Shown here in pieces: positions 5,722 to 12,595 of a DNA stretch of 64,000 nucleotides. A program made the translations under genes and the position numbers. The stretch is from Arcobacter sp. F2176 (GTDB taxonomy: Bacteria > Campylobacterota > Campylobacteria > Campylobacterales > Arcobacteraceae). Below the pieces are notes generated by a model, which saw nothing but the letters and a program-made list of their open reading frames with translations, had not been told where the DNA came from and ran no database searches. Numbering within the stretch: position 1 is the first letter of the stretch; each line of letters opens with the position of its first letter. The DNA lies in NCBI RefSeq assembly GCF_004116465.1, contig NZ_PDJV01000002.1, forward strand, positions 229,022 through 293,021, read 5' to 3'.

Positions 5722-5841
5722 AATTTCTCCGAATTTTAATCATAGTAATTTTTATTAATTTAATTGCCTATTTATATCTAAATTGAAATAGAAATTTGCT
5801 TAATTGCTATACACAAAAAAAGTATAATAAAATGTTTATTT

Positions 5842-5856
5842 TGATAATAATTATCA
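5842..5856. promoter_or_regulatory. Perfect Fur-like operator
   Basis: TGATAATAATTATCA, an exact 7-1-7 inverted repeat. It is identical to the box at 7319-7333. It lies about 70 bases before the start of the 147-residue ORF of the flavodoxin operon, in the divergent region with sucC. Fe-Fur binding here would repress the flavodoxin operon when iron is plentiful, as known for flavodoxins in other bacteria. Confidence 0.8.
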
Positions 5857-5896
5857 TAATAAGAAAAAATTAAGTTTCTTTTATTTATAATACTTG

Positions 5897-5913
5897 ATAT
5901 TGATTATCAATAT
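5897..5913. promoter_or_regulatory. Second Fur-like palindrome
   Basis: ATATTGATTATCAATAT, an 8-1-8 inverted repeat 11 bases before the ATG of the first gene in the flavodoxin operon. It partly matches the Fur consensus (TGAT...ATCA core) and would overlap the ribosome-binding region or a promoter. Confidence 0.55.
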
Positions 5914-5924
5914 AAAGGATAAAG

Positions 5925-6368
5925 ATGAGTTTTAATGAATGTACTAATTTAATAAATTCAATACATGATAATAAAAATACAAATGAAAATTTTTTTAATT
6001 ATGTATATAAAAAAATAGCAAGAAATACAAAAAATAGATTTGTGGAAAAGTATGAAGATTGTATTGATATCGTTTTATCAAACCATCCATCCATAAAAGT
6101 TATTCCTTTATGCACAAATATGAATAAAGAAAATTTATCAATAAAAAATGAAGTGAAAATTGCTTGCGATATAGTACTTAACAGCGAATATAAATATGTA
6201 TATTTTGTATATCCAAAAAATAGAAATTTCAATAAACATATTCAAGTAAAAATACCATTACTTGAAGAATCTTGTAGTGAATATATGGTGAAATTGATAC
6301 CTTATTCATTAAATGACATTATTAAAAAAAGGAGTTGTAGTGAAAACAGCAATATTTTATGCAAGTAG
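5925..6368 (+). CDS. Unknown 147-residue protein heading the flavodoxin operon
   Basis: A soluble, Lys/Asn-rich protein that I do not recognise. No signal peptide or membrane segment is seen. Four Cys are scattered (near 6, 46, 62 and 80) and three more occur near the C-terminus (117, 137, 145). The start ATG has AAGGATAAAG directly upstream. Two Fur-like palindromes precede it. The 3' end overlaps the flavodoxin start by 29 bases in another frame, so the two are co-transcribed and probably translationally coupled. Its presence in front of an iron-sparing redox protein suggests a role in iron stress, but this rests on context only. Confidence 0.65.
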   Translation: MSFNECTNLINSIHDNKNTNENFFNYVYKKIARNTKNRFVEKYEDCIDIVLSNHPSIKVIPLCTNMNKENLSIKNEVKIACDIVLNSEYKYVYFVYPKNRNFNKHIQVKIPLLEESCSEYMVKLIPYSLNDIIKKRSCSENSNILCK

Positions 6369-6840
6369 TACGGGAAATACTTCAAATATAGCAGAATTAA
6401 TAGGAAAAGAATTATCAATAGATTCAATTCATGATATTGCAGATGTAAGTCTATCAAAAATTAATGAGTATGAAAATGTAATATTTGGAATATCAACTTG
6501 GGGTGATGGTGATTTACAAGATGACTGGGATGATAATTTTGAACAATTAAAAGAAGTAGATTTTTCATCAAAAAAAGTAGCTTTGTTTGGATTAGGAGAT
6601 CAAGATGGATATCCAGATACATATTTAGATGCTATGGGTATTGTTTATGAACAACTAAAAAGTATGGGTGCAAATGTGGTAGGGGAATGGGAAAGAGATG
6701 AATCCTATGAGTTTGATGACTCAAAAGCTTTTGTTGATAATAAATTTGTAGGTTTGGCTTTGGATGAAGATACACAAGATGATTTGACTAATCAAAGAGT
6801 TTCAAAATGGGTATCTTACATAAAAGATGATTTTATTTAG
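6340..6840 (+). CDS. fldA: Flavodoxin, long-chain
   Basis: A 166-residue flavodoxin. The FMN phosphate loop is SSTGNTSN (residues 9-16); STWGDGDLQDDW and GLGDQDGYPDTY are the two isoalloxazine-flanking loops, and the insertion typical of long-chain flavodoxins is present. The start is the GTG at 6340, preceded by AAAAAGGAG at five bases; an in-frame ATG at 6313 adds nine residues not found in flavodoxins. Flavodoxin replaces ferredoxin as electron carrier when iron is short and serves pyruvate/2-oxoglutarate oxidoreductases in Campylobacterota. Two upstream Fur-like boxes fit iron repression. Confidence 0.95.
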   Translation: MKTAIFYASSTGNTSNIAELIGKELSIDSIHDIADVSLSKINEYENVIFGISTWGDGDLQDDWDDNFEQLKEVDFSSKKVALFGLGDQDGYPDTYLDAMGIVYEQLKSMGANVVGEWERDESYEFDDSKAFVDNKFVGLALDEDTQDDLTNQRVSKWVSYIKDDFI

Positions 6841-6956: not shown

Positions 6957-6990
6957 AAGTTAAGGGGGTACTAATGCCCTTAGCTTTCTT
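6957..6990. terminator. Bidirectional terminator between convergent genes
   Basis: Stem TAAGGG/CCCTTA (6961-6966 with 6977-6982), extended outward by AAG/CTT across a T-G pair, with a 10-base loop. A T-rich tract follows on the plus strand and A-rich bases precede. It serves the flavodoxin operon and overlaps the stop codon of the minus-strand gene ending at 6980. Confidence 0.7.
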
Positions 6991-7207
6991 TTAGTGTATT
7001 AGATTTTTTAATTTTATTTTTTGGTTGATATAGCATGTGATGCCACAATGCAAATCCGCAAAAAGCAACGCCAGCTACTACATGAACTTTTTTTGCAACT
7101 TTATTTTTCATAAACATAGAAGTTACTACTGTTGCTCCTAAAGTTGCTGTCATTCCAATCTTTGCAGCTTCTTTTTGAATCTCTAAATCAATTGGCATTT
7201 CTTTCAT
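6980..7207 (-). CDS. Small membrane protein downstream of the fez-like cluster
   Basis: A 75-residue protein with two hydrophobic helices (about 17-34 and 41-60). The first has a small-residue pattern (GMTATLGATVV), and the second includes a Cys and a His-rich end (CGFALWHHMLY). It overlaps the preceding 39-residue ORF by 20 bases, and both lie behind two Fur-like boxes. His and Cys at a membrane face would suit metal or haem contact, but this is speculation. No family recognised. Confidence 0.68.
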   Translation of the reverse strand: MKEMPIDLEIQKEAAKIGMTATLGATVVTSMFMKNKVAKKVHVVAGVAFCGFALWHHMLYQPKNKIKKSNTLKES

Positions 7208-7307
7208 TTCTTTTTTTCCTTTTATCTAGAACTTTTGCAGTTTTATTTACAGTTTTTACCGTTAAAATTGCTGTTAAAGCTGTTGCAAGTGGTAGTAAAA
7301 ATGGCAT
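7188..7307 (-). CDS. 39-residue hydrophobic/basic micro-protein
   Basis: The ATG at 7307 is preceded by AAAAGGATTA, a good ribosome-binding site. The N-terminal 20 residues (MPFLLPLATALTAILTVKTV) form one membrane helix and the rest is strongly basic (DKRKKRNERN). The beginning resembles the 76-residue protein of the main operon (MPLPFLIGVAVGAG), hinting at a related membrane-anchor role. It overlaps the 75-residue gene and starts 12 bases from a perfect Fur-like operator. Too short for a family call. Confidence 0.6.
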   Translation of the reverse strand: MPFLLPLATALTAILTVKTVNKTAKVLDKRKKRNERNAN

Positions 7308-7318
7308 ATTAATCCTTT

Positions 7319-7333
7319 TGATAATAATTATCA
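7319..7333. promoter_or_regulatory. Perfect Fur-like operator
   Basis: TGATAATAATTATCA, a perfect 15-base palindrome and an exact copy of the 5842-5856 box. It sits just upstream of the small-gene pair reading from 7307 and downstream of the P1B ATPase stop at 7387, so it marks a separate promoter. Confidence 0.8.
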
Positions 7334-7363
7334 ATATTTTATCTAAAGAAACTTAAATAAAAC

Positions 7364-7378
7364 TAATAACTATTATCA
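7364..7378. promoter_or_regulatory. Weaker Fur-like operator
   Basis: TAATAACTATTATCA matches TGATAATnATTATCA with two mismatches. It lies 45 bases (centre to centre) from the perfect box at 7319-7333, giving a tandem pair in front of the small gene pair. Confidence 0.5.
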
Positions 7379-7386
7379 ATATACTA

Positions 7387-9498
7387 CTACTTTACACCCC
7401 TTATTGAATTAAGCAATAATCCAATGGTTGTACCATTATGTAAAACAGCTGTCACAATTGGAGAAAATAGACCAAATGTAGCACCTGCTAGTATGCAAGA
7501 GTTGATTCCAACAGTTGCATTGAAATTGTTATTAATCAGATTCATTGTTTTATTAGCATATTCTTTTGCTTCAACAACTGCAGCAATATCATCTTTTAAA
7601 AGACTAATATCAGCAGTTGCTTTTGCAATATCGGCACCTCTACTCATAGATATTCCAACATGGGCAGATATTAATGCAGGTGCATCATTTATTCCATCAC
7701 CAATGAAAGCAACTTTTTTGCCTTCATCCATAAGTTCTTTTACTATTTTTGCTTTGTCTTGTGGGAGTAATTCTGCTCGTACTTCATCAATACCAATTTC
7801 ATCAGCAATAAGTTTTGCTTTTTCTTTCGTATCACCTGTTAGCATTATGATATTTTTAACACCTAGTTTTTTTAATTTACTAATAGAATCTTTTGTATTT
7901 TCTCTTAATTCATCAGCGAGTCCAATGGTTCCTAAAAGCTTTCCATCATAACCAATATAAAGTAGAGTTTTACCATTTTTTAATGAATTATTGATTTTAT
8001 CTTTATGTTCAGAAAAATCTATTTTTTCATCATCTTCAACAAAGTGTCTACTTCCAATTACTACAGCTTTTCCTTTTACTTCTGTTTTTACCCCATGTGC
8101 AACAATAAATTCAACTTCTTCATGGTGCATATGAACAAAACCTCTCTCTTTTGCTGCTTTTACAACAGCTTCTGCTACTGGATGGAAATAGTGTTCTTCA
8201 GTTGAAGCTGTTAAATTTAAAACTTCCTCTTCTGTCCAATCATCACTATAGGATTCTACAGAGATTACTTCTAATTCTCCGCAAGTTAAAGTACCAGTTT
8301 TGTCAAATACAAAAGTATCTGCATTACTAAGTGCTTCAATAGATTTTGCACCTTTTATCATAATTCCATTATGTCCAGCTTTTGAAATAGTTGATTTAAA
8401 AGCAACTGGAGTTGCTAGTTTTAAAGCACAAGAGTAATCTGCTTGTAAAATAGAAGCTACTCTTTCAAAATCCCTTGCAAAAATATAAGAAACTCCAGCA
8501 AGCCCAAGTGTTACAGGAACTAGTTTATTTGCTAGTTTATTTGCTTTTAATTGAACTGATGATTTTTCATTTAGTGAATTTTCAATATAGTGTTTAATTC
8601 TTTGAGTTGCTGTATCTGAACCTACATGTTCAGCCCAGATTCTAAATCTTCCCTCTTCAACAATAGTTCCAGAGATAACTCTATCCCCTCTATATCTTAC
8701 GATTGGTTCAGCTTCTCCTGTCATAGATACTTGATTTACACTACCTGTTCCTTCTAAAATGTGTCCATCAACTGGTATTGTATTTCCAATACCAACAACT
8801 ACGATATCTCCAACTTTCACTTCATTACTTTTTATTAAAACTTCAGTAACCTTGTTATCAACTATTTTTTCAACCCAAGCTTCTTCTACATTTGGTTTTG
8901 CTAACTCTTTTAATAAATCATCACTTTTATGAACAGTCGTCTCTTCAATATATTCACCAAGTTCTAACATCATATTTGTAGAGTTTGCAGCAAGATAATC
9001 TTTTCTATAAATTGAGATGGCAACAGCTGCACTTTCTAAAACCTTTGAAGTTAAACCTTCTTCTAAAAGCTCTTTTGAACCATCAATTAAAAGTGGAATA
9101 GAAGCACTTGTAGTAATCCCAGCTTTTAATAAATCATTGTTAATAAATCTTTCAGAGATAAGCGCACTAGAAGCTCTTAACATACCGTTTATTGAAGGCT
9201 CTTCATCACTTACACAAGATACACAAACAGCTTCATTTTGGCAATTATTTAGTAATTCATCAAGTGTTAATTCACTTAAAATAGCTTCAATTTCATTTGT
9301 AATGTCTTTATTTATTTCAAAAATAATTGAAAATGCTTTTTTATTTATTCGTACACTTTCAACATGATTAATTTTTTTAAGATAATTTTTTAAAATATCT
9401 TCATCTATAAATTTTTCTTTTAGTAAGAAATATTTATATCTAAGTCTTGAAGAAGTTTGGTGTACTTTAATAAATTTATTATTCATAGGTTTATTCAT
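7387..9498 (-). CDS. fezB: P1B-6-type heavy-metal ATPase, ferrosome-associated (FezB-like)
   Basis: A 703-residue P-type ATPase. The N-terminus has an HMA-like fold with the basic motif SRLRYKY (18-24) instead of the CxxC metal motif; a small Cys group follows (86, 92, 95). The actuator has TGEAEP (260), the phosphorylation motif is DKTGT (399-403), the P1B HP pair is at 439-440, and GDGINDAP is near the C-terminus. The transmembrane metal motif is SCA (356-358), not CPC, CPH or SPC. As I recall the P1B classification, SCA marks the P1B-6 group, which includes FezB, needed to load iron into ferrosomes. It is last in an operon of six, overlapping its neighbour by 8 bases. Alternative: a plain iron or manganese exporter. 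Confidence 0.82.
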   Translation of the reverse strand: MNKPMNNKFIKVHQTSSRLRYKYFLLKEKFIDEDILKNYLKKINHVESVRINKKAFSIIFEINKDITNEIEAILSELTLDELLNNCQNEAVCVSCVSDEEPSINGMLRASSALISERFINNDLLKAGITTSASIPLLIDGSKELLEEGLTSKVLESAAVAISIYRKDYLAANSTNMMLELGEYIEETTVHKSDDLLKELAKPNVEEAWVEKIVDNKVTEVLIKSNEVKVGDIVVVGIGNTIPVDGHILEGTGSVNQVSMTGEAEPIVRYRGDRVISGTIVEEGRFRIWAEHVGSDTATQRIKHYIENSLNEKSSVQLKANKLANKLVPVTLGLAGVSYIFARDFERVASILQADYSCALKLATPVAFKSTISKAGHNGIMIKGAKSIEALSNADTFVFDKTGTLTCGELEVISVESYSDDWTEEEVLNLTASTEEHYFHPVAEAVVKAAKERGFVHMHHEEVEFIVAHGVKTEVKGKAVVIGSRHFVEDDEKIDFSEHKDKINNSLKNGKTLLYIGYDGKLLGTIGLADELRENTKDSISKLKKLGVKNIIMLTGDTKEKAKLIADEIGIDEVRAELLPQDKAKIVKELMDEGKKVAFIGDGINDAPALISAHVGISMSRGADIAKATADISLLKDDIAAVVEAKEYANKTMNLINNNFNATVGINSCILAGATFGLFSPIVTAVLHNGTTIGLLLNSIRGVK

Positions 9499-9832
9499 TA
9501 TTCGCTTGCATTTGAGCTTTCATATCTTCATACTTTTCTTTTAACTCTTCAATTCCTGCTTGAAAAAGTTCACTTCCTTTTCCAAAAACTTGGAAAGCTT
9601 TTTCTTGGGCATTTTTATTTGTAAGTAAATATGTAACTGCTGCACCTATTAACGCACCTTTTACAAAATCTCCGGTATTAAATCCACTTTGTGTTCCCTC
9701 AACATTTGTTTGTTGTGTTGCATTTGTAGGATTTGCATTTTGATTTATATATGGGTTTTGGTTGATATTAGCAGTAGTTCTTATATCACTTGGTCTGCTA
9801 CTTTCTATATTTATATCGTATTGATTATTCAT
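9491..9832 (-). CDS. Glycine-zipper membrane protein of the fez-like operon
   Basis: 113 residues: a hydrophilic Asn/Gln-rich N-terminus (1-48), one helix with small-residue spacing (GDFVKGALIGAAVTYLL, about 52-68) and a charged, probably coiled-coil C-terminus (73-113). GxxxG-like helices that promote membrane packing are described in ferrosome and magnetosome membrane proteins. Eight-base overlaps with both neighbours show tight coupling with the ATPase. The exact role is unknown; a structural or scaffolding role on the organelle membrane is inference from the operon. Confidence 0.75.
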   Translation of the reverse strand: MNNQYDINIESSRPSDIRTTANINQNPYINQNANPTNATQQTNVEGTQSGFNTGDFVKGALIGAAVTYLLTNKNAQEKAFQVFGKGSELFQAGIEELKEKYEDMKAQMQANNE

Positions 9833-10187
9833 TGATTTCCTCTTCCAAAAGACAGTTTTCGTTTGTTAGATATTTTTTATCAAGTTGTTCTTCAATAACT
9901 TCTAGGGCATAGATTCCCATAGCTCCAACAGAAAGAGCAGTAACAGCTTTCAATAATCCACCTTTTTCACCTAAATAATTAGCAGTAGCAATAGCAGCAC
10001 CAGTTGCAATTGCTCCTTGTGAAGTCTTTTTAATAGTATCTTTAATTGCAGCTTTTTTTTCTAATTCATTTGATTTTACTTTTTTATAATTGATAGCTCC
10101 GCTAATTACAGCAGATGCAATAGCTCCACTAATTACATGTCCTAGGACATTTCTTTGAGCTCCAGTATTTATAACGATCTCTTTCAT
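9825..10187 (-). CDS. Alanine/glycine-rich membrane protein of the fez-like operon
   Basis: 120 residues with hydrophobic stretches rich in Ala and Gly: GHVISGAIASAVISGAI (about 16-32), GAIATGAAIATANYLG (about 57-72) and LLKAVTALSVGAMGIYALEV (about 76-96). The spacing of small residues is glycine-zipper-like. The C-terminus is acidic and ends EEEINE. The start ATG overlaps the stop of the 76-residue gene by four bases (ATGA). No enzymatic motif. Probably a membrane structural protein of the same system. Confidence 0.75.
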   Translation of the reverse strand: MKEIVINTGAQRNVLGHVISGAIASAVISGAINYKKVKSNELEKKAAIKDTIKKTSQGAIATGAAIATANYLGEKGGLLKAVTALSVGAMGIYALEVIEEQLDKKYLTNENCLLEEEINE

Positions 10188-10414
10188 TTCTCTTCCTTGT
10201 TTATTTCTTCTTTAACTTCTTTTGTCTCTTTTTTTTGGCATAAGTTATCTTTTAATTCACTAACATTTTTTTTAGTTTTACTTATTGTTTCATTTGCAAA
10301 TTCTTTTGATTTACCAACTATTTCATCTGTTTTAGTTTTTACTTTATCTGATTTGTTATATGCAAGTACAGCACCTGCTCCTACGGCTACCCCGATTAAG
10401 AATGGTAATGGCAT
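10184..10414 (-). CDS. YtxH-like membrane-anchored coiled-coil protein
   Basis: 76 residues: an N-terminal glycine-zipper helix (LPFLIGVAVGAGAVLAY, 3-19) followed by a long Lys/Glu-rich amphipathic tail with a single Cys. This is the architecture of YtxH-type proteins. GAGGAG precedes the ATG. It lies 3 bases after the ferritin-like gene and overlaps the next gene by 4. The role is probably membrane anchoring; exact function unknown. Confidence 0.72.
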   Translation of the reverse strand: MPLPFLIGVAVGAGAVLAYNKSDKVKTKTDEIVGKSKEFANETISKTKKNVSELKDNLCQKKETKEVKEEINKEEK

Positions 10415-10417
10415 TTT

Positions 10418-11095
10418 CTACTCCTCATTTTGATTTTTTGAAATATAATTATTCATAAGTGCAATGATTGCACCACCAAAAACAGCACCACTTGTCATAG
10501 ATAAATTAAGTTTTGAAAATATTTTTGTAATCGAACTTTCATCAATATTTCCTGACATAATATCATCAAGTAAAACTTGATATTCGCCAAGTTTTTCCAT
10601 CATATTTTCTTGGTTAATATTTACATTGCTATTACTAGTATAATGCATAAGTACAGAGTTTCTAAAAGCTGGTAGATGATTATTAAAAGATGCTGCTTGT
10701 AATTGATAAAGTACATTTTTTATATCATCTTGAGTTACATGACTTAATAGATTATTGTACATTGCTATATTATTAATCTCTGCTGCAACTCCCATCTCAG
10801 AACATTCAATTAATGTATTTGGAATTTCAATTTTTGAGTACCAATCATTAATAGGTACTTCAACTGCATACTTTTCCATTAGTTTAATCAAAGCACCATA
10901 ATGTATTGCTTCTGCTTCTTTGATATTTACAAATGGTTGCACTAAACCAAATTTTTCAATTATTTTTGTGTAAGTTTCATATGCTTTATATTCATCATAC
11001 ACAGCAATTCTTAATATTTGAGTTGTAATAGGTATTTGACTATTTATATCAACTCTAGCACTTGTTAAAAGTTGCTCATCTATATTTGTCTCCAA
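10418..11095 (-). CDS. Ferritin-like four-helix protein (DUF2202-like) with C-terminal hydrophobic segment
   Basis: 225 residues. The central part (about 25-165) is helical with spaced Glu and His residues of the ferritin-like kind (DEYKAYETY, IKEAEAIHYGAL, MGVAAEINNIAMYN), suited to a di-iron site. The C-terminus has a small-residue hydrophobic helix (MTSGAVFGGAIIALMNNYI, about 198-216). The start is a TTG at 11095, directly after the stop of the preceding gene, with a very strong AAAGGAGG eight bases upstream. In this operon an iron-oxidising or iron-binding protein tethered to a membrane is a natural guess. The DUF2202 link is by pattern only. Confidence 0.72.
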   Translation of the reverse strand: METNIDEQLLTSARVDINSQIPITTQILRIAVYDEYKAYETYTKIIEKFGLVQPFVNIKEAEAIHYGALIKLMEKYAVEVPINDWYSKIEIPNTLIECSEMGVAAEINNIAMYNNLLSHVTQDDIKNVLYQLQAASFNNHLPAFRNSVLMHYTSNSNVNINQENMMEKLGEYQVLLDDIMSGNIDESSITKIFSKLNLSMTSGAVFGGAIIALMNNYISKNQNEE

Positions 11096-11410
11096 TTAAA
11101 TAACCTCCTTTGCTAAATTGTTAATTAAATCAGTTATTTCATCTATATTCTCTTGATTTATTAAATCTTCCCATGTTTTTGGCTTAAATACTTTTGGGTC
11201 ATATTTAATTGTAACTGAAGCAATAATTTTATTTATCTTAATGTGTTCTATCCCAGATATTTTTTCTGGAAGGGTCTGAATATCTTCAATAGAAATATTT
11301 CCAGCAGAATCCTTTATTTTAGGATTGACTCTTACTCTTAGTCTTCCTGGAGTATGTGCAATTATTGTAAAAAATTTTGCTATATTTATAATTTCTTCTG
11401 TAGTAATCAA
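11096..11410 (-). CDS. HMA-like domain protein heading the fez-like operon
   Basis: 104 residues. The motif HTPGRLRVRVNP (about 18-29) followed by a beta-alpha-beta pattern (ISGIEHIKINKIIASVTIKYDP) resembles the HMA-like N-terminus found in P1B-6 ATPases; the ATPase of this operon has the related SRLRYKY. No CxxC metal motif is present. The start is TTG at 11410 with AAAAGGA upstream. It is the promoter-proximal gene, behind a Fur-like box at 11468-11482. It may interact with the ATPase or act on the organelle membrane; that is inference. Confidence 0.72.
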   Translation of the reverse strand: MITTEEIINIAKFFTIIAHTPGRLRVRVNPKIKDSAGNISIEDIQTLPEKISGIEHIKINKIIASVTIKYDPKVFKPKTWEDLINQENIDEITDLINNLAKEVI

Positions 11411-11467
11411 ATTTATTCCTTTTGATGATTATTATATATATAATCTTAATAATATCTTATTGTAAAT

Positions 11468-11482
11468 TTGTAATCATTATCA
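11468..11482. promoter_or_regulatory. Fur-like operator of the fez-like operon
   Basis: TTGTAATCATTATCA, two mismatches to TGATAATnATTATCA, 58 bases before the TTG start of the first gene. A second, weaker partial match (TGATGATTATTATAT) lies at 11423-11437 close to the ribosome-binding site. Confidence 0.6.
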
Positions 11483-11498
11483 AAAAAAGTATTTTAGT

Positions 11499-11951
11499 TT
11501 ATTTTTGACAGGTTTGACATAAACCATATATTGTTACTACATGGTCTTTTAGAAGAAAGTTATTTGTTTTTGCTATTTCTAATTGTTTTTGTTCCATAAT
11601 TTCATCTTCAAATTCGATTATAGTGTGACATGAATTACAAATAAGATGATCATGGTGGTTTGAATAGTCAAGTTCATAGTAGTTTGCTTTTTCAAGGATA
11701 TTTAAGCATTTTATTATTTTAAGTTCTTCAAATAATTTTAAAATTTTGTATACGGTTGCAATAGAAATATTTACATTATACTGAATTTTAAGTTCTTGAT
11801 TTATATTTTCTGCTGTTAAGTGACCTTTTGAGTAGTAGAGGGCTTTTAGAACATAATCTTTTTGGATAGTATTTTTTAATTTAAGATTTTGGAAGTGCTG
11901 TTTATATCTTCTTAATAAGTTATTAAAGTGTGTTTCATTCTTTTCAAGCAT
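11499..11951 (-). CDS. Fur-family transcriptional regulator
   Basis: 150 residues with the Fur layout: a winged helix (about 15-85; recognition region near NVNISIATVYKILKLFEEL) and a dimerisation domain with HHDHLICNSC (Cys/His metal motif, about 97-106) and a C-terminal CQTC, completing a structural Cys4 zinc site. It could be a second Fur or a PerR-like paralogue dedicated to this cluster; residues alone do not decide. It follows a 43-residue membrane ORF with an 8-base overlap, and the fez-like operon begins 89 bases beyond its stop on the same strand. Confidence 0.9.
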   Translation of the reverse strand: MLEKNETHFNNLLRRYKQHFQNLKLKNTIQKDYVLKALYYSKGHLTAENINQELKIQYNVNISIATVYKILKLFEELKIIKCLNILEKANYYELDYSNHHDHLICNSCHTIIEFEDEIMEQKQLEIAKTNNFLLKDHVVTIYGLCQTCQK

Positions 11952-12075
11952 TTAATAATTCTTTTATCATAATAAAAGAAACAGCTACAAAAAGTGCAGA
12001 GTAATATACTTTCCATAAATTAGCATGTATTTTTATATTTTTCTGAAGTAAAGACATCTTTTTAACTTTTTTCAT
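11944..12075 (-). CDS. 43-residue single-helix micro-protein coupled to the Fur-family gene
   Basis: The ATG at 12075 is preceded by AAGG at seven bases. The product has a basic N-terminus (MKKVKKMSLLQKN) and one membrane helix (LWKVYYSALFVAVSFIMI). Its TGA stop overlaps the ATG of the regulator by 8 bases, a classic coupling arrangement. Two Fur-like boxes lie upstream. A membrane peptide whose translation feeds into that of an iron regulator could be a coupling leader or part of the storage system. Confidence 0.6.
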   Translation of the reverse strand: MKKVKKMSLLQKNIKIHANLWKVYYSALFVAVSFIMIKELLNA

Positions 12076-12101
12076 TATATAACCTTGTCATTGTTATATA
12101 A

Positions 12102-12116
12102 TGATACTTATTGTGA
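12102..12116. promoter_or_regulatory. Fur-like box, distal repeat
   Basis: TGATACTTATTGTGA shares AATGATACTTATT with the box at 12134 as a direct repeat 32 bases away, about three helical turns. The right half-site is degraded. Confidence 0.4.
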
Positions 12117-12133
12117 CCTTAAAGTAATATTAA

Positions 12134-12148
12134 TGATACTTATTATCA
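12134..12148. promoter_or_regulatory. Fur-like operator in the divergent region
   Basis: TGATACTTATTATCA, one mismatch from the consensus palindrome. It sits between the regulator transcript (minus strand from 12075) and the divergent gene at 12206, so it could control both. Confidence 0.65.
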
Positions 12149-12205
12149 TTATAATTTAGATTTAAGTTTATTGTTCATATAATCAGGAAATTGAAAAGGA
12201 TTATT

Positions 12206-12595
12206 ATGCTAAATTTAACTTTAATTTCTTCAGTAGCAAAAAGTGCATTAGTTGGAGCAGTTGCCACAAAATTGGTTGATACCTTTGTTTCTACAAAAAT
12301 AAATAATAAAATAGAACAAAATAAATGGCTTAGAAACACAAAGTTAGAGCTATTTTCAAAATTAACAGAAGATATTTTATCAATGGGTCATGAAAATGTT
12401 GATGAACAATTAAGACAGATAAATAAAACATCAGCAAAAATAATTCTATTATTAAATGATAGAAAATTAACCAATAAAATAGAAACATATACAAGCACAC
12501 TAATAAAATTAAAAAGTACAAGAAGAATAGAAAGTAGTATGGATTTTGTAAATAAAGATATGATTGGTTATTTACAAAGAAATATTCGAATATAA
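12206..12595 (+). CDS. Unknown protein with N-terminal hydrophobic helix, divergent from the Fur-family gene
   Basis: 129 residues from the ATG at 12206, which has AAAAGG six bases upstream (an in-frame TTG at 12191 is possible but lacks a site). The N-terminal 30 residues form a small-residue-rich hydrophobic helix (VAKSALVGAVATKLVDTF), and the rest is a charged helical, probably coiled-coil domain (NKIEQNKWL, NVDEQLRQINKTS). The plan, a glycine/alanine helix plus coiled coil, is the same as in three proteins of the fez-like operon. It lies behind a Fur-like operator. No known family recognised. Confidence 0.65.
   Translation: MLNLTLISSVAKSALVGAVATKLVDTFVSTKINNKIEQNKWLRNTKLELFSKLTEDILSMGHENVDEQLRQINKTSAKIILLLNDRKLTNKIETYTSTLIKLKSTRRIESSMDFVNKDMIGYLQRNIRI

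What the first reader, a model, noticed from the sequence alone, without database searches (positions are those of the whole stretch)
7188..12595. A Fur-boxed ferrosome-like (fez) gene cluster in an Arcobacter-type genome
The six-gene operon 11410-7387 joins an SCA-motif P1B ATPase (as I recall, the P1B-6 hallmark) with an HMA-like basic-motif protein, a ferritin-like protein with a hydrophobic tail, and three small glycine-zipper or coiled-coil membrane proteins. This is the layout of ferrosome (fez) clusters, which build membrane-bound iron granules in other phyla. Regulators and small ORFs flank it. The set of accessory proteins seems different from those I know, and iron organelles in Campylobacterota would be notable.
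Basis: partly seen in the sequence, partly recalled or inferred. Interest (0 to 1): 0.93.

Follow-up and report, generated by a model that had tools for sequence, protein, structure and literature searches.

The report
Ferritin-bearing ferrosome genes in Arcobacter relatives
A relative of Arcobacter carries a gene cluster homologous to those that build iron-storing compartments (ferrosomes) in other bacteria, with an added ferritin-like protein, and about a third of the genomes sampled from its phylum carry a cluster like it, so these bacteria likely make such compartments.

Summary
In detail: six tightly packed minus-strand genes (11410-7387) encode an HMA_2 protein, a ferritin-like (DUF2202) protein with a glycine-zipper tail, three small glycine-zipper proteins and an SCA-motif P1B ATPase. 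In an 81-row tree the ATPase falls in the SCA clade with a Rhodopseudomonas palustris protein, apart from E. coli CopA and ZntA. The R. palustris-type locus has the same core (HMA2, small proteins, ATPase) but no match to the ferritin-like HMM. Of 397 Campylobacterota genomes sampled, 136 have such an ATPase; the ferritin-like gene was found in 128 of those 136 loci. Its likely metal ligands are intact in 32 of 32 loci of the window's family but in 3 of 68 of another. Best reading: a Campylobacterota-type ferrosome locus, a new variant of a known kind. Granule formation is untested. The two founding ferrosome papers were not readable here, so priority for Campylobacterota cannot be judged.

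The parts
7387..9498 (-). FezB-type P1B ATPase, 703 aa, HMA_2-like N-terminus, DYSCALKLATP motif
   Evidence: SCA clade of 50 rows, SH-aLRT 99; DYSCA[LI][KR]L in 136 of 136 Campylobacterota loci
9491..9832 (-). 113-aa YtxH-like glycine-zipper protein, homologous to the gene before fezB in the R. palustris-type locus (E 1.3e-16 in that small ORF set), Azospirillum, Vibrio
9825..10187 (-). 120-aa glycine-rich membrane protein, homologue in the R. palustris-type (E 2e-6), Vibrio and Azospirillum loci; weak MamC similarity (E 0.003, far below cut-off)
10184..10414 (-). 76-aa glycine-zipper plus amphipathic helix protein; R. palustris counterpart only weak (E 0.044)
   Evidence: (133 of 136 loci)
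10418..11095 (-). ferritin-like (DUF2202) protein, four-helix bundle plus C-terminal glycine-zipper tail; likely iron ligands E35, E62, H65, E106, H140
11096..11410 (-). HMA_2 protein with HTPGRLRVRV basic motif, first gene of the operon
   Evidence: found in 136 of 136 loci
11467..11483 (.). Fur-box-like palindrome (2 mismatches) upstream of the operon
   Evidence: enrichment across loci
7318..7334 (.). perfect Fur-box-like palindrome TTGATAATAATTATCAA between fezB and the fezC-like gene
7188..7307 (-). 39-aa hydrophobic ORF, in one ORF with the fezC-like gene in an Arcobacter plasmid copy
   Evidence: 69.7% identity over 33 aa of L037:9191-9520
6980..7207 (-). 75-aa FezC/DUF4405-like transmembrane hairpin with invariant K16, H42, H56: predicted heme-b redox module
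   Evidence: DUF4405 E 0.0069, below cut-off; 125 of 125; homologues in fez loci L042, L046, L048, L040
11499..11951 (-). Fur-family regulator next to the operon (one of four Fur-family matches in the genome)
   Evidence: a Fur-family gene found in 80 of 136 loci
12133..12149 (.). Fur-box-like site (3 mismatches) upstream of the Fur-family gene

Best explanation
This is a Campylobacterota version of the ferrosome (fez) locus, homologous in its ATPase and at least three companion proteins to the Rhodopseudomonas palustris type, and it likely builds membrane-bound iron stores when iron-starved cells meet iron. Predicted working: iron shortage lifts Fur repression at the operon and at the separate fezC-like gene; the glycine-zipper proteins would shape or line a vesicle membrane; FezB would pump Fe(II) into it, helped by the HMA_2 protein; the ferritin-like protein, tethered by its glycine-zipper tail, would bind or oxidise iron at that membrane; and the heme-type hairpin protein would move electrons so that iron can be stored as Fe(III) or released as Fe(II). 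Shown here: the genes, their homology, the conserved order, the Fur-box-like sites. Inferred: substrate, membrane shaping, redox role, granules.
For: Tree: SCA clade of 50 rows (SH-aLRT 99) holds the window's ATPase and the R. palustris protein P0127; CopA, ZntA and a TPC-motif ATPase lie in another group. Plasmid ATPases of nearly full length: Azospirillum 46%, Vibrio 39%, Cereibacter 38%. 136 of 397 sampled phylum genomes have the ATPase, with a gap between 572 and 292 bits; in those 136 loci: HMA2 136, ferritin-like 128, 76-aa family 133, 120-aa family 128, fezC-like 105 in the map and 125 by raw HMM. Fur-box-like sites are enriched: 54 of 136 upstream regions reach 13 of 16 matches against 2.8% of base-shuffled controls; 27 of 99 fezB-fezC gaps against 1.7%. 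FezC is a heme-b cytochrome related to DUF4405 (PMC11334425, passages read).
Against: No granule, expression or transport data. The 76-aa protein's match to the R. palustris-type locus is weak (E 0.044), and the fezC-like HMM has no match in that 9.5-kb stretch. The DUF4405 match is below Pfam's cut-off. 82 of 136 operon upstream regions do not reach 13 of 16 box matches, and 26 of 125 fezB-fezC gaps under 40 bases were not scored. Ferritin-like ligands are complete in only 52 of 128 copies. In 8 of 136 loci no ferritin-like gene was found, so it is not essential to the system. The tree is a quick one of hand-picked rows, flags three long branches (the TPC-motif ATPase, L060 and the genome's own L002) and an odd residue make-up in 48 of 81 rows, and has no D. 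magneticus, S. putrefaciens or C. difficile FezB. P0127 was not shown to be RPA2333 itself.
Confidence: 0.78

Rival explanations
1. A fez-related iron exporter or detoxification module that works in the ordinary cell membrane and makes no organelle: FezB exports Fe(II) and the ferritin-like protein oxidises it.
For: P1B ATPases are mostly exporters (general knowledge); the ferritin-like protein has a ferritin fold and intact likely ligands in the window's family.
Against: The small glycine-zipper proteins kept in 128-133 of 136 loci, with homologues of at least two in the R. palustris-type locus, are not part of known exporter operons, to my knowledge; Fur-box-like sites suggest induction in iron shortage, when export would make little sense (inference).
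Confidence: 0.13
2. An ordinary heavy-metal (Cu, Zn, Cd or Co) export operon, as automatic annotation names it ('P-type Zn(2+) transporter').
For: NCBIfam puts the ATPase over the cut-offs of the general heavy-metal and cadmium-family models; some protein records carry the zinc name.
Against: Below the copper model's cut-off and far below the ZntA and CopA equivalog cut-offs; the tree separates it from CopA, ZntA and a TPC-motif ATPase; no CPC motif; neighbours are HMA_2, ferritin-like and glycine-zipper genes.
Confidence: 0.04
3. A magnetosome-related remnant (the 120-aa protein resembles MamC, the 76-aa one Mms6).
For: NF038051 MamC E 0.0034 and NF040917 Mms6 E 0.064.
Against: Both scores are far below cut-offs (17.7 of 100 and 13.5 of 200 bits) and fit shared glycine-rich repeats; none of the ten proteins scanned had a magnetosome-family match over a cut-off.
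Confidence: 0.02

Closest known systems
Six-gene fez operon of Rhodopseudomonas palustris (RPA2333-2338; Grant et al. 2022, paper not held, recalled; locus numbers from PMC12016538)
   Different: No match to the ferritin-like or fezC-like HMM in the stretch fetched; FeoA- and FeoB-like ORFs upstream (by eye) instead of a Fur-family gene
Azospirillum brasilense plasmid six-gene cluster (NZ_CP059451.1)
   Same: HMA2, small glycine-zipper proteins, YtxH and ATPase at 46% identity; its first gene has an HMA_2 domain followed by a hairpin that resembles the 75-aa protein by eye
   Different: No match to the ferritin-like HMM; the fezC-like HMM does not detect its hairpin at E 0.01
Pseudothauera rhizosphaerae fez-type cluster (L041)
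   Same: Ferritin-like protein (core HMM E 4.5e-24) between HMA2 and the small proteins, then ATPase
   Different: Betaproteobacterium, with Feo-like ORFs downstream (by eye); tail of its ferritin-like protein matches only at E 0.4; shows the ferritin-like variant is not confined to Campylobacterota
FezC / DUF4405 cytochromes (PMC11334425)
   Same: Short membrane protein with conserved histidines; weak DUF4405 match
   Different: 75 aa and no HMA2 domain; the heme-tested FezC sequence was not compared
MJ0754 (PDB 3q4n, 3q4r; DUF2202, ferritin superfamily)
   Different: The window's protein adds a glycine-zipper tail and sits in a fez operon
Clostridioides difficile FezA/FezB (PMC12574912, passages read)
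   Same: Membrane protein plus FezB transporter under Fur
   Different: Only FezA and FezB are named there, against six to eight genes here; sequences not compared

Membership tests
ferrosome (fez) gene cluster | ATPase belongs to the FezB clade, apart from CopA, ZntA and P1B-5 | tested here: met
   with R. palustris P0127 as the named reference; D. magneticus, S. putrefaciens and C. difficile FezB not included; the P1B-5-type reference is known by its TPC motif only (recalled)
ferrosome (fez) gene cluster | SCA motif in the metal-binding transmembrane helix (P1B-6 hallmark; recalled, from no call) | tested here: met
   DYSCALKLATP in the window; DYSCA[LI][KR]L in 136 of 136 loci; R. palustris DYSCAVKFGTP
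ferrosome (fez) gene cluster | Accessory set and order as in a ferrosome-forming species (HMA2, three small membrane proteins, FezB) | tested here: met
   HMA2 E 1.4e-13, 120-aa E 2e-6, 113-aa E 1.3e-16 (E for a small ORF set); the 76-aa protein weak (0.044)
ferrosome (fez) gene cluster | FezC heme-binding membrane protein | tested here: inconclusive
   Two invariant His in 125 of 125 copies; DUF4405 E 0.0069 below cut-off; heme-tested FezC not compared
ferrosome (fez) gene cluster | Fur control | tested here: inconclusive
   Fur-box-like sites above chance; no binding or expression data
ferrosome (fez) gene cluster | Membrane-bound iron granules that depend on the genes | not testable with these tools
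   needs microscopy
ferritin superfamily (DUF2202) | Four-helix ferritin fold | tested here: met
ferritin superfamily (DUF2202) | Diiron ligands (E, ExxH, E, and H on the fourth helix) | tested here: met
   E35, E62, H65, E106, H140 in the window and in 32 of 32 loci of its family; no Glu three before the fourth-helix His, as in MJ0754; metal binding untested
Cu/Zn/Co exporting P1B ATPase | Groups with CopA, ZntA or P1B-5 | tested here: not met

The most novel reading that the evidence does not exclude
Much of Campylobacterota builds a hybrid iron organelle: a ferrosome whose membrane carries its own ferritin-like ferroxidase, a ferritin domain joined to a Fez-type glycine-zipper anchor, together with a heme redox protein, so that pumping, oxidation and release of iron sit on one membrane; in some lineages the ferritin domain has since lost its iron site and become structural.
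Probability: 0.38. Interest if true: 0.85.

Novelty: new variant of a known kind. Interest (0 to 1): 0.66.

Why it matters
Ferrosomes are recent, and to my knowledge only a few species have been shown to make them. This result predicts them in about a third of sampled Campylobacterota genomes, including relatives of Arcobacter and Aliarcobacter butzleri (named ferritin-like hits), and adds a ferritin-like component that links the two known ways of storing iron. It gives direct gene-deletion targets and a ready comparison between loci with and without likely iron ligands in the ferritin-like protein.

Tried and rejected
A copper/zinc exporter reading was rejected by the tree. A magnetosome reading was rejected because the MamC and Mms6 scores are far below cut-off. 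I first thought the ferritin-like gene was unique to Campylobacterota; Pseudothauera (L041) and a MAG labelled Gammaproteobacteria (L048, whose ATPase falls inside the Campylobacterota clade, so transfer or misbinning) also have it. The idea that its tail is the same module as the small protein in the same slot of the R. palustris-type and Vibrio operons was only partly supported: among 10,565 ORFs of the other loci the tail HMM's best matches that are not ferritin-like genes are fez small proteins (L046 6.6e-8, L036 1.6e-5), but the Vibrio and R. palustris-type proteins themselves do not reach E 0.1, the Pseudothauera ferritin-like protein reaches only 0.4, and profile comparison gives the module 60% probability against the tail and 92% against the 113-aa family; so it is a shared Fez-type anchor rather than proof of one slot. 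That the Azospirillum and Duodenibacillus HMA2-hairpin proteins are relatives of the 75-aa protein rests on eye and a forced alignment; the HMM did not detect them at E 0.01. I lowered the novel case from 0.40 to 0.38 for this.

Limits. The plasmid search stopped at its 5000-record limit. The tree used 81 hand-picked rows: the window, 24 of 136 Campylobacterota loci, 36 of 80 genome-contig loci, 11 other loci and 9 proteins. The tail's fold (residues 156-225, pLDDT under 50) was not resolved. In the locus maps the 113-aa and 76-aa families cross-match, so 85 of 136 for the 113-aa family is a lower bound (raw HMM 136). Some loci end at contig ends, so 'not found' is not always absence. 80 of 82 genomes with a ferritin-like hit also have the ATPase; the other two, G177 and G204, are weak hits. 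An RNA fold of the fezB-fezC gap was slightly more stable than shuffles (z -2.03, 8 of 200 as good) and was not followed.

Paper searches: ferrosome+Arcobacter 0; ferrosome+Campylobacter 2, and ferrosome+ferritin-like 2, judged from listing and abstract starts, plus passages of PMC12574912; Aliarcobacter + iron storage + P-type ATPase 0; DUF2202 0; P1B-ATPase/Campylobacter/ferritin-like/FezB/Arcobacter, three of five, 2 (listing); ferrosome alone 30 (listing); ferrosome/fez/P1B-6, two of three, 8 (listing). Passages were read in PMC11334425, PMC12574912, PMC12016538, PMC12748827 and PMC12004955. The library is open-licence PMC only, so these searches do not show that nothing is in print.
Full report
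What is there. The window lies in a 3.27 Mb, 98-contig genome (G000). The closest named ATPase hit is 98% identical to an [Arcobacter sp.] protein, so I call it an Arcobacter relative. On the minus strand six genes run from 11410 to 7387 with gaps of 0, +3, -4, -8 and -8 bases. Two further small ORFs (39 aa at 7188-7307 and 75 aa at 6980-7207) follow behind a perfect Fur-box-like palindrome at 7318-7334. A Fur-family gene (11499-11951) precedes the operon with its own weaker box; the genome has four Fur-family matches.

The ATPase. It scores over the cut-offs of NCBIfam's general heavy-metal and cadmium-family models, not the copper one. Its metal motif is DYSCALKLATP where copper and zinc exporters have CPC. 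A tree of 81 hand-picked ATPases (quick IQ-TREE, SH-aLRT, midpoint root) puts it in an SCA clade of 50 rows (99) that includes a named R. palustris protein. CopA, ZntA, the genome's two other P1B ATPases, a TPC-motif Sinorhizobium protein and others form a separate 24-row group, and a 7-row group with a GTG-type motif is the nearest outgroup. The tool flagged three long branches, all in the 24-row group, and odd residue make-up in 48 of 81 rows. In the window's own 26-row subclade (100), 25 rows come from Campylobacterota loci or the Arcobacter plasmid; the exception is L048, a MAG labelled Gammaproteobacteria. Two of the three loci of family f6 were in the tree and group with the Azospirillum/Pseudothauera proteins instead (87). 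P1B-6 as the name for the SCA type is recalled, not from a call.

The accessory genes. R. palustris CGA009 makes ferrosomes from RPA2333-2338 (PMC12016538, passage). It has FeoA- and FeoB-like ORFs (by eye), an HMA2 gene, proteins of 103, 160 and 199 aa, and the ATPase. The Campylobacterota HMMs match the HMA2 (1.4e-13), 160-aa (2e-6) and 199-aa (1.3e-16) proteins, and the 103-aa one only weakly (0.044); E-values are for that small ORF set. Neither the ferritin-like nor the fezC-like HMM has a match there. Azospirillum, Vibrio and Cereibacter plasmids hold ATPases over 97-99% of the query at 46, 39 and 38% with similar small genes. I did not show that P0127 is RPA2333 itself.

The likely missing part. 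Lys16, His42 and His56 of the 75-aa protein at 6980-7207 are invariant in all 125 copies that its HMM found in the 136 Campylobacterota loci; all lie downstream of fezB on the same strand, 92 within 400 bases. The HMM also finds homologues in fez-type loci L042 (Sulfurospirillum), L048 (two), L046 (Desulfarculaceae, 9.2e-17), L040 (Hahella, 1.8e-5) and on the Arcobacter plasmid, but not the similar-looking hairpins behind an HMA2 domain in Azospirillum and Duodenibacillus. In an alignment of seven such outgroup sequences, those two included, His56 is present in 7, His42 in 6 and Lys16 in 6. DUF4405 is its only Pfam hit and below cut-off. Because FezC is a DUF4405-like heme-b cytochrome (PMC11334425, passages), I predict a heme redox role.

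How widespread. In 397 Campylobacterota genomes, drawn evenly from a larger group, 136 have the ATPase at 572 bits or more; the next matches are 292 bits or less. All 136 loci were fetched. HMA2 was found in 136, ferritin-like in 128, the 76-aa family in 133, the 120-aa family in 128, fezC-like in 105 in the map (125 by raw HMM), a Fur-family gene in 80. By family code: f3 73, f1 32, f2 19, f10 7, f6 3, f7 1, f13 1; f1, the window's own family, has it in 32 of 43 genomes. Family codes carry no names; I did not establish which genera f2 and f3 are. Named carriers are Arcobacter species and Aliarcobacter butzleri (protein hits), a Sulfurospirillum contig and two Arcobacter plasmids.

Regulation. 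54 of 136 operon upstream regions reach 13 of 16 matches to the Fur-box-like palindrome against 2.8% of base-shuffled controls, and 27 of 99 fezB-fezC gaps against 1.7%; 26 further gaps under 40 bases were not scored. 82 of 136 upstream regions do not reach it, so control may differ by lineage or the consensus may not fit all.

Verdict. The locus is homologous to a ferrosome locus and keeps its core, with a ferritin-like protein, a separate fezC-like gene and a nearby Fur-family gene as its distinguishing features. What it works like: iron loading of a membrane compartment. What is untested: granules, substrate, redox role. The founding papers on ferrosomes (Grant 2022; Pi 2023) were not readable here, so I cannot say whether Campylobacterota loci were already listed in them. 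None of my searches of the open library showed ferrosomes reported for Arcobacter or tied to a ferritin-like protein (listings and abstract starts).

Noticed in passing
L149-L152, L154, L158, L159, L161, L164-L166, L172, L193, L218, L220, L223, L224, L228: 18 of 136 fez loci carry a second P1B-type ATPase (698-774 aa) upstream of the fez genes on the same strand, with a basic R-x-RLKS-type motif near its N-terminus and the metal motif SCPC(A/S)T(V/I)LAAS; it could be a paired transporter for iron release or delivery (only about 5 kb upstream was held, so a lower bound).
   Followed up: partly
L038:5893-8130 and L049, L051, L054, L061, L090, L111: A P1B-like ATPase group with a GTG-type motif (for example DFGTGIRV) instead of SCA or CPC is the nearest outgroup of the SCA clade (midpoint root) and in Gloeothece sits near an HMA2 gene and a DUF5132 gene; function unknown.
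   Followed up: no
window 5841-5857, 5894-5910, 6313-6840: Two Fur-box-like sites with one mismatch each precede ORF 5925-6368 (no Pfam family) and a flavodoxin gene (6313-6840), likely another iron-starvation unit next to the fez locus.
   Followed up: partly
L037 (CP134847.1, Arcobacter sp. AZ-2023 plasmid): A plasmid-borne copy of the cluster lies near TonB-dependent receptors, an integrase and a Tn3 transposase; its ATPase is annotated in two pieces, while a similar plasmid (CP129951.1) matches in one.
   Followed up: no
L048 (MAG labelled Gammaproteobacteria): Campylobacterota-type fez cluster with ferritin-like gene and two fezC-like genes; its ATPase groups with Arcobacteraceae, so transfer or misbinning.
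   Followed up: partly
G000:C24:30837-32475: A ferritin-family match with an in-frame TAA next to a second weak one and a Fur-family gene in the window's own genome.
   Followed up: no
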